A stretch of DNA of 64,000 bases from a bacterium (GTDB lineage: Bacteria; Planctomycetota; Planctomycetia; Pirellulales; Pirellulaceae). The notes beneath the pieces are model-generated. The model saw only the letters and a list, made by a program, of their open reading frames with translations. It made no database searches and had not been told where the DNA came from. This document shows positions 8,937 to 49,550 of the stretch, one piece after another (within the stretch, counting starts at the first letter, position 1; the number at the start of each line of letters is the position of its first letter). A program made the translations under genes and the position numbers. The DNA lies in NCBI GenBank assembly GCA_030430075.1, contig JAUIGN010000001.1, positions 248,001 to 312,000 on the forward strand, given 5' to 3'.

Positions 8937-8953
8937 GTCATGCACAACATGAC
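8937..8953 (+). repeat. GTCATGC/GCATGAC-type hairpin element, single copy
   Basis: GTCATGCACAACATGAC forms a short inverted repeat and differs by one base from the hairpin triplicated at 33613-33711. Flanking bases (ATTTC before, CTCCGC after) also resemble those copies. It lies in the 3' region of the DUF1501 gene and may act as a weak terminator or be a dispersed palindromic repeat. Confidence 0.6.
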
Positions 8954-9054
8954 CTCCGCAAAGGCGAACGTCCGCGGCATCACACCTGTCGCCGCTCACC
9001 GGACGGTCGTCCGCTTTCCAATGAGAAGCTCACTCTGTTCCGAACTCAGCCGCC

Positions 9055-10344: not shown

Positions 10345-10372
10345 GATCCAACTCCCAAAACCTGACCAATTG

Positions 10373-10420
10373 CTCGGCGCGGGTCTCCGACCCCGCCGAA
10401 ACGGCCGACCGAAGGTCTCC
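10373..10420 (+). repeat. 48-bp dispersed 'cap' repeat, copy 1
   Basis: Begins CTCGGCGCGGGTCTCCGACC and ends GACCGAAGGTCTCC. Near-identical copies lie at 49282-49329 and 63157-63204 (one to three differences). It contains two tiny inverted repeats, GGTC-TCC-GACC and GACC-GAA-GGTC. This copy stands alone, without the tandem units that precede the other two. It lies 29 bases upstream of the minus-strand gene start at 10344. Confidence 0.9.
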
Positions 10421-16498: not shown

Positions 16499-16538
16499 GG
16501 AACCGGGGCTAACGCCCAACGGCTGATGAATCATCCGG
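16499..16538 (+). repeat. 40-bp dispersed GGGGCTAACGCCC repeat, copy 1
   Basis: Starts GGAACCGGGGCTAACGCCCA and ends ATGAATCATCCGG. A copy with two differences lies at 23904-23943, and a clearly diverged one at 63439-63478. Weaker similarity extends about 85 bases upstream in both good copies (GTGAACT... GTCGAAAC... GCGCCCG). GGGGCTAACGCCC includes the inverted pair GGGCT/AACGCCC. Confidence 0.8.
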
Positions 16539-23903: not shown

Positions 23904-23943
23904 GGAACCGGGGCTAACGCCCAACGGCTAATGAATCATGCGG
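23904..23943 (+). repeat. 40-bp dispersed GGGGCTAACGCCC repeat, copy 2
   Basis: Matches the copy at 16499-16538 with two differences, in the same orientation. It lies between the convergent lipoprotein and permease genes. The similar upstream flank (GCGGTGAACT near 23832; GTCGAAACGGGCTAGCGCCC near 23865) shows that the element is longer than its conserved core. Confidence 0.8.
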
Positions 23944-33596: not shown

Positions 33597-33747
33597 GCTT
33601 GACCCGCATTCCGTCATGCACAGCATGACCTACCCCCGCTTGGCCCGCATTCCGTCATGCACAGCATGACCTACCCCCGCTTGACCCGCATTCCGTCATG
33701 CACAGCATGACCTACCCCCGCATGTCGCAGGTCATGCGGCGCATGAC
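33597..33747 (+). repeat. Three 41-bp tandem units, each with a GTCATGC/GCATGAC hairpin, plus a fourth hairpin
   Basis: Units at 33597-33637, 33638-33678 and 33679-33719 are almost identical. Each carries the palindrome GTCATGCACAGCATGAC (first at 33613-33629) and ends CTACCCCC. A fourth hairpin with the same 7-bp arms, GTCATGCGGCGCATGAC, lies at 33731-33747 in a different context. The array sits just after the cytochrome b stop codon and may act as a multi-hairpin 3' end. The rest of the 317-base gap to 33892 shows no gene. Confidence 0.9.
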
Positions 33748-48914: not shown

Positions 48915-49176
48915 CCCGATTCTCCCCTGCCAGACCAACGTGTCGACGCCTCGAAGCGATCGTTTGCCAAGGTTCGTCGATCGGGCTCACCCGCACCCGA
49001 TCCGATGCCACTCGGCCGCCGAGACTTCCTGGCGGAGTTGTACCATGCCGGTCGCCCCAACGCACGCCTCGCAGGCCCACCGGCCTGTCGACCGAAGTCG
49101 GGGCCATTCGGCCATCCGAAATCGGTACGACAACTGCATGCTGCGCGACGAGTGTGGTCAGCGCGGGTCATGTGCA

Positions 49177-49329
49177 TTCGGCGCGGGGCTCCTTCTGCTC
49201 GGCGCGGGGCTTAATCTGCTCGGCGCGGGGCTCCTTCTGCTCGGCGCGGGGCTTAATCTGCTCGGCGCGGGTCTCCATCTGCTCGGCGCGGGTCTCCGAC
49301 CCCGCCGTAACCGCCGACCGAAGGTCTCC
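49177..49329 (+). repeat. Five 21-bp tandem units leading into the 48-bp cap repeat, copy 2
   Basis: Units start at 49177, 49198, 49219, 49240 and 49261 and read CTCGGCGCGGGGCTCCTTCT or the TTAATCT variant in alternation. The 48-bp cap occupies 49282-49329 and itself begins with the unit sequence. A related array of 24-bp units precedes the same cap at 63061-63204. All lengths are multiples of three. Confidence 0.92.
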
Positions 49330-49443
49330 TTCCGCGATCCGTCAGCGCATCAATTCGCATCAACGCGCATCAATTCGCACCAGTGCTGGCGACCTGCGGA
49401 GGAGACCTACGGTCCGGCAATGTGCGGGGTCGGAGACCCGCGC

Positions 49444-49500
49444 ACAGCGCGCCGCGCAGCGCACAGCGCGCCGCGCAGCGCACAGCGCGCCGCACAGCGC
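49444..49500 (+). repeat. Three 19-bp GC-rich tandem units
   Basis: ACAGCGCGCCGCGCAGCGC occurs at 49444-49462 and 49463-49481, with a slightly changed third copy at 49482-49500. It abuts further GCGC-rich sequence and lies just after the end of the minus-strand gene at 49551. Confidence 0.85.
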
Positions 49501-49550
49501 CTAGCACGCCGCGCACAACAAGAACCCGCCGCGCGCACCACGACGCGTAA

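What the first reader, a model, noticed from the sequence alone, without database searches (positions are those of the whole stretch)
49177..49329. Modular repeat family: 21-bp array plus 48-bp cap, with sister loci at 10373 and 63061
Seen: the same 48-bp cap occurs three times in 64 kb, in one orientation, alone (10373) or after arrays of 21-bp (five) or 24-bp (four) units that share its first 16 bases. Each cap lies upstream of a minus-strand gene. All unit lengths are multiples of three, keeping frames open. Small palindromes GGTC-TCC-GACC and GACC-GAA-GGTC are conserved. Inference: a mobile or slippage-grown element, possibly acting as an RNA leader or protein-binding array.
Basis: seen in the sequence. 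Interest (0 to 1): 0.6.

Follow-up and report, generated by a model that had tools for sequence, protein, structure and literature searches.

The report
Two-hairpin REP element with half-hairpin arrays
The 48-bp "cap" is one of about 377 copies of a small mobile hairpin element (a REP) that belongs to a single-stranded-DNA transposase found elsewhere in the same genome, and the repeats beside it are local duplications that build up on its outer side only.

Summary
The cap is 49 nt: a long hairpin, a linker, a short GNA-loop hairpin, then TCC. About 377 copies lie in this 9.24 Mb planctomycete genome (reversed-pattern control: 0). They are nearly all intergenic and random in orientation to genes. 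Copies are of two kinds, A (stem TCGGCG/CGCCGA) and B (TGTGCG/CGCACA).

Between two such pairs lies the genome's one gene of this REP-associated tyrosine transposase (RAYT) clade (C8:200476-201021, outside the window). Its relatives in Planctomycetota, Hydrogenedentota and Thermodesulfobacteriota are mostly flanked by inward-facing caps of the same design. The cap is therefore the REP, and the A/B pair the REPIN or BIME, of a REPtron: a known kind.

Three features are unusual: a second conserved hairpin; amplification of solo caps rather than pairs (92 of 104 type-A caps, 95% identical); and tandem arrays of the 5' half-hairpin plus copied flanking bases on the outer side only, most likely grown by hairpin-provoked replication slippage (inferred). 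Frame-keeping and a fixed relation to minus-strand genes are not supported genome-wide.

The parts
10372..10420 (+). Solo type-A cap (REP), no array; hairpin 1 plus GACC-GAA-GGTC hairpin 2 motif plus TCC
   Evidence: single-strand DNA fold -14.4 kcal/mol, hairpin 1 formed
49176..49280 (+). Array of five 21-bp half-hairpin units (cap 5' half plus locus-specific spacer) on the outer (5') side of the type-A cap
49281..49329 (+). Type-A cap (REP) of the convergent pair
   Evidence: both hairpins in the predicted fold
49330..49400 (.). 71-bp spacer between the two caps of the REPIN-like pair
   Evidence: 3' ends facing, 71 bp apart; the whole 49281-49450 folds at -60.8 kcal/mol, z -8.1
49401..49448 (-).
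49449..49515 (-). 19-bp array on the outer (5') side of the type-B cap
   Evidence: (tandem repeat 49440-49515, period 19)
63060..63155 (+). Array of four 24-bp half-hairpin units; spacers copy the flank preceding the array
63156..63204 (+). Type-A cap (REP), solo
63195..63375 (+). 89-bp direct duplication that begins in the cap's 3' end (GAAGGTCTCC), two copies

Best explanation
The cap is the REP of a REPtron. A 181-aa HUH/Y1 single-strand transposase (RAYT; one gene of its clade in this genome, at C8:200476-201021) recognises the cap's folded single strand and copies or moves it, in trans, into intergenic DNA, both as A/B inverted pairs (REPIN/BIME) and, in this genome mostly, as solo caps. 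The arrays form afterwards: when the cap's hairpin stalls DNA synthesis, the new strand slips back and duplicates the bases just outside the insertion together with the 5' half of hairpin 1, so units accumulate only on the cap's outer side. Shown: the copy number, the two-hairpin anatomy with covariation in hairpin 1, the A/B pairing, the RAYT link across genomes, and the flank origin and polarity of the arrays. Inferred: actual mobilisation by the RAYT, and slippage (rather than RAYT nicking) as the source of the arrays. The confidence below is for the REP/RAYT identity; for slippage as the source of the arrays it is about 0.6.
For: Copy number far above control. Outer stem covaries: own arms 5.18 of 6 pairs, shuffled partners 3.97, at most 4.22. 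All nine close convergent pairs are A+B. A RAYT lies between two near-identical A/B pairs, with NCBIfam REP_Tyr_transpos at 92.4 bits (cut-off 80), and the AlphaFold model (pLDDT 93) best matches PDB 4er8, TnpAREP bound to a REP hairpin. Five close relatives in other genomes are flanked by caps of the same design, mostly with different stems. In named genomes 19 of 37 have strict two-hairpin caps in the flanks, generally facing inward, against 0 of 24 other RAYTs from related genomes. The RAYT clade is well supported at 98/97. 42 of 46 clusters are intergenic although genes cover about 84%. Array spacers match the flank before the array (0.64 against 0.41 shuffled, at most 0.475). Units nearest the cap are more cap-like than the farthest (25 arrays against 8, p = 0.005). 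The bases before GCTCGG are C/T then T, which fits cleavage at CT by TnpAREP (PMC8266576).
Against: No empty site was found, so movement is not shown directly. Two related genomes with many caps (G001 26, G010 59) gave no convincing RAYT of this clade, though both are fragmented assemblies. In this genome the GT[AG]G foot of canonical REPs is missing. Break points of array units are scattered, so they do not point to one cleavage site; array growth polarity is only moderate.
Confidence: 0.9

Rival explanations
1. The same REP/RAYT system, but the arrays are made by the RAYT itself: it nicks in the conserved loop (GGTC|TCC) and the free 3' end primes repeated copying of the cap's 5' half.
For: GGTCTC in the loop and after hairpin 2 is nearly invariant in 31 caps from nine genomes. 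TnpAREP cuts at CT and its 3'-OH may prime synthesis (PMC8266576). Half-unit arrays on the same side recur in relatives from several phyla (40 hits 5' against 13 hits 3').
Against: Break points are spread over positions 8-22 of the cap with several peaks, not one CT site.
Confidence: 0.3
2. The cap is a structured RNA (leader, terminator or mRNA-stability element) kept by selection on transcripts.
For: GNA and GNRA-like loops and a covarying stem would also suit RNA.
Against: No Rfam match in the window. Orientation to both neighbouring genes is random. The only gene linked to caps across genomes is a single-strand DNA transposase.
Confidence: 0.04
3. A multi-copy protein-binding or chromosome-organising site unrelated to transposition.
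For: High identity among solo caps (95.3%) and invariant core; known REPs bind gyrase, IHF and Pol I (PMC6006769).
Against: Lineage-specific bursts (377, 59, 26, 1 copies; nearly all other phylum genomes 0) and flanking of RAYT genes suggest a mobile family; binding by host factors could be secondary.
Confidence: 0.05
4. A MITE of some other transposase (for example a TIR element), with the RAYT association a coincidence.
For: Some copies in G010 lie within a longer inverted repeat (about GGCGGTAACAAAAC...GTTTTGTTACCGCC), so other elements do interact with caps.
Against: Caps of the same design flank RAYTs of one clade in several phyla, with stems that differ by genome, and none of 24 other RAYTs.
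Confidence: 0.03

Closest known systems
REP / REPIN (BIME) with RAYT transposase (REPtron), e.g. E. coli and Pseudomonas fluorescens SBW25 (PMC2817692, PMC3116915, PMC8266576)
   Same: Hundreds of short imperfect palindromes between genes; two kinds arranged as inverted pairs; the same palindromes flank a single RAYT gene; HUH/Y1 fold closest to TnpAREP 4er8; a bulged stem in many copies; YT (often CT) at the 5' edge.
   Different: Two hairpins per REP; foot GCTC/GTTG in this genome instead of GT[AG]G; solo copies outnumber pairs and are more alike than the paired ones, whereas in SBW25 singlets are less conserved and read as remnants; arrays of half-hairpins on the outer side.
TIRtrons / TIRYT with double-palindromic terminal repeats (PMC3733652)
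   Same: A Y1 transposase gene bracketed by inverted repeats that may contain two palindromes and exist as repeat families.
   Different: The first hairpin here has a GTGG-type REP foot in several relatives, so it is REP-like rather than an unrelated TIR; those sequences could not be compared directly here.
TnpAY1 subclass 2.6 and class 3 with 'atypical secondary structures' (PMC6006769)
   Same: Y1 transposases whose flanking hairpins lack the canonical GT[AG]G; class 3 is found in Planctomycetes.
   Different: Tyrosine motif here is YLHENP, closer to 2.6 (YIH[QN]NP, Bacteroidetes) than to class 3 (YV..EQ, foot CnGA); class membership was not tested.

Membership tests
REP element | Short palindrome, high copy number, intergenic | tested here: met
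   377 full caps; 42 of 46 sampled clusters outside predicted genes; stem covariation
REP element | Conserved GT[AG]G tetranucleotide at the 5' foot | tested here: not met
   In this genome the foot is GCTC (A) or G[TC]TG (B); GTGG occurs in close relatives G025, G029, G044 and G457. So it is filed as a variant that works like a REP, not as a canonical GTAG REP
REPtron | Cognate RAYT gene flanked by the same repeats | tested here: met
   C8:200476-201021 between two A/B pairs; five relatives likewise; 19 of 37 named relatives by strict pattern; 0 of 24 other RAYTs
RAYT (TnpAREP) | HUH motif, tyrosine motif and Y1 transposase fold | tested here: met
   H59xH61 and Y139 invariant in 34 proteins; NF047646 matched by 34 of 34; best PDB fold match 4er8
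RAYT (TnpAREP) | Binds and cleaves the cognate single-stranded REP | not testable with these tools
   Needs purified protein; only the YT edge at the 5' end fits a CT cut
REPIN / BIME | Two REPs in inverted orientation forming one hairpin | tested here: met
   All nine close convergent pairs are A+B; 49281-49450 folds at -60.8 kcal/mol, z -8.1; but only 12 of 103 sampled A caps are paired
REPIN / BIME | Singlets are degraded remnants of pairs (as in SBW25) | tested here: not met
   Solo A caps are 95.3% alike, paired A caps 90.0%; the caps were picked with a core pattern, which favours intact ones
Structured RNA of a known family | Match to an Rfam model | tested here: not met
   No match at gathering score in the window

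The most novel reading that the evidence does not exclude
A single 49-nt cap, with two different hairpins on the same strand, is by itself a complete minimal transposable unit: hairpin 1 and hairpin 2 play the parts of the left and right end hairpins of IS200/IS605 elements, so that no inverted pair is needed. This would explain why solo caps, not REPINs, were amplified in this genome.
Probability: 0.2. Interest if true: 0.65.

Novelty: new variant of a known kind. Interest (0 to 1): 0.45.

Why it matters
How RAYTs spread REPs is still unsolved. Here is a REP family, linked to one RAYT clade in several phyla, in which the amplified unit in this genome is a solo element with two hairpins. It also leaves a polar trail of half-hairpin duplications beside many copies, which could serve as a record of how the folded strand is handled during replication or nicking. 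The array lengths may also serve as strain markers.

Tried and rejected
Frame keeping / coding repeats: rejected (unit lengths not multiples of three; intergenic). Fixed relation to genes or to a strand: rejected (no link to GC skew). RNA family: no Rfam match. PF01797-type Y1 genes in this genome as the partner: nine found, none flanked by caps; the true partner is missed by the Pfam models but matches NCBIfam. Empty or orthologous sites: genes beside two of the window's arrays searched in four related genomes, with no matching neighbourhood, and no clean empty site among paralogues. A single cut site for array break points: not seen. AlphaFold with only five sequences failed; it worked with 34. 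A first scan of named genomes with the single protein found nothing; the alignment found 41 loci.

Full report
CHECK. The cap is best drawn as 49 nt, GCTCGGCGCGGGTCTCCGACCCCGCCGAAACCGCCGACCGAAGGTCTCC. The match is far beyond chance in the window and in the genome (358 cores against 4 for the reversed pattern; 377 full caps against 0).

ANATOMY. Hairpin 1 is TCGGCG-c-GGGTC / TCC or TCT / GACCCCGCCGA with a one-base bulge. After a linker comes hairpin 2, GACC-GNA-GGTC (also GNNA loops), then TCC. The outer stem changes by whole pairs: TCGGCG/CGCCGA, TGTGCG/CGCACA, TATGCG/CGCAT, GTGGCAC/GTGCCAC and others. Over 104 distinct arm pairs the true partners make 5.18 of 6 pairs, shuffled partners 3.97 and at most 4.22. 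The core GGTCTC...GACC...GACC...GGTCTC is nearly invariant; because the caps were found by that core, its constancy is partly by selection, but columns outside the pattern are just as constant among the solo caps. The 92 solo type-A caps are 95.3% alike over 50 nt, among unrelated flanks. In single-strand DNA folds hairpin 1 forms in all three window A caps, hairpin 2 in the one at 49281.

WHERE IT LIES. In about 0.84 Mb of two contigs, 42 of 46 clusters fall outside genes predicted with a simple gene finder of my own, although such genes cover about 84%. Orientation to neighbouring genes is random and is unrelated to GC skew. Outside this genome the full pattern is found 26 times in a genome of the same genus, 59 and 1 times in two others of the family, and in nearly none of 392 genomes of the phylum.

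PAIRS AND THE TRANSPOSASE. Caps are type A or type B. All nine close convergent pairs in the sample join one A and one B with the 3' ends facing. Only 12 of 103 A caps have such a partner, and the split is sharp. The pair in the window, 49281-49450, folds into one long hairpin (-60.8 kcal/mol, z -8.1). Two nearly identical A/B pairs bracket a 181-aa gene at C8:200476-201021. It matches NCBIfam REP-associated tyrosine transposase above its cut-off. Its AlphaFold model (pLDDT 93.4) is closest to PDB 4er8, a TnpAREP bound to a REP hairpin.

THE LINK HOLDS ACROSS GENOMES. The five closest relatives in other genomes (four of them 55-59% identical over their full length, one broken) are all flanked by caps of the same design, mostly with other stems. 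Of 37 relatives in named genomes, 19 have strict two-hairpin caps upstream and 19 downstream, generally facing inward: Planctomycetota, Hydrogenedentota, Thermodesulfobacteriota such as Desulforhabdus sp. TSK, and two Chloroflexota. Most Chloroflexota relatives have hairpin 1 alone. None of 24 other RAYTs from related genomes has such a cap. The RAYT clade is well supported (98/97). One caveat: G001 and G010 carry caps, yet no convincing RAYT of this clade was found in their fragmented assemblies.

THE ARRAYS. Of 114 sampled caps, 87 have at least one unit on the 5' side. A unit is the first part of the cap (most often 8-22 nt) plus a spacer. Spacers are alike within an array (0.83 against 0.49 for random pairs) and match the flank just before the array (0.64 against 0.41, at most 0.475 in 500 shuffles). 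The array is therefore a tandem duplication of flank plus half-hairpin. Units next to the cap are more cap-like than the farthest ones in 25 arrays against 8 (p = 0.005), as expected if new units arise at the cap. The same 5'-sided half-units recur beside RAYTs of this clade elsewhere (40 against 13 on the other side). Scattered break points favour slippage at the hairpin over cutting at one site, but RAYT nicking in the conserved loop remains open.

COMPARISON WITH WHAT IS KNOWN. REPs, their inverted pairs and their RAYTs are a known kind (PMC2817692, PMC3116915, PMC8266576), also in Planctomycetes (PMC3733652). Tandem REPIN clusters with flanking bases were described in SBW25 (PMC3116915), but as whole elements. 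Different here are the second hairpin, the loss of the GT[AG]G foot in this genome (GTGG is present in relatives), the amplification of solo caps that are more alike than paired ones, and the one-sided half-hairpin arrays. I found no paper describing this family, within an open-access library only.

VERDICT. A new variant of a known kind. That the cap is a REP of a RAYT system: 0.9. That the arrays come from hairpin-provoked slippage: about 0.6; from RAYT nicking: about 0.3.

Noticed in passing
window 33597-33721: Three 41-bp tandem copies holding a canonical REP, GTAGGTCATGCTGTGCATGAC (- strand; a degenerate copy at 8937-8957). The same REP flanks a RAYT of another genome of the family (L252), so the host carries a second, separate REP family.
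   Followed up: partly
window 16505-16524 and 23910-23929; L127, L128: A third hairpin repeat, GGGGCTAACGCCCAACGGCT, also found beside two Y1 transposase remnants on contig C20.
   Followed up: partly
L130, L133, L147, L155 (G010): Several caps in G010 sit inside a longer inverted repeat, about GGCGGTAACAAAACT...AGTTTTGTTACCGCC, which would make a three-way junction with the two cap hairpins.
   Followed up: no
L158, L161 (G220): A distant genome of the phylum has a 28-bp tandem repeat GGTCTCCGACCCCGCGCTCACCGACCGC that resembles the cap core without its architecture; probably unrelated.
   Followed up: no
L269: A contig labelled Thermoplasmata archaeon carries a RAYT of this clade close to the Chloroflexota ones, with tandem GGGAGACCTTCGCCCAACGTGA repeats; either transfer or a mis-binned contig.
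   Followed up: no
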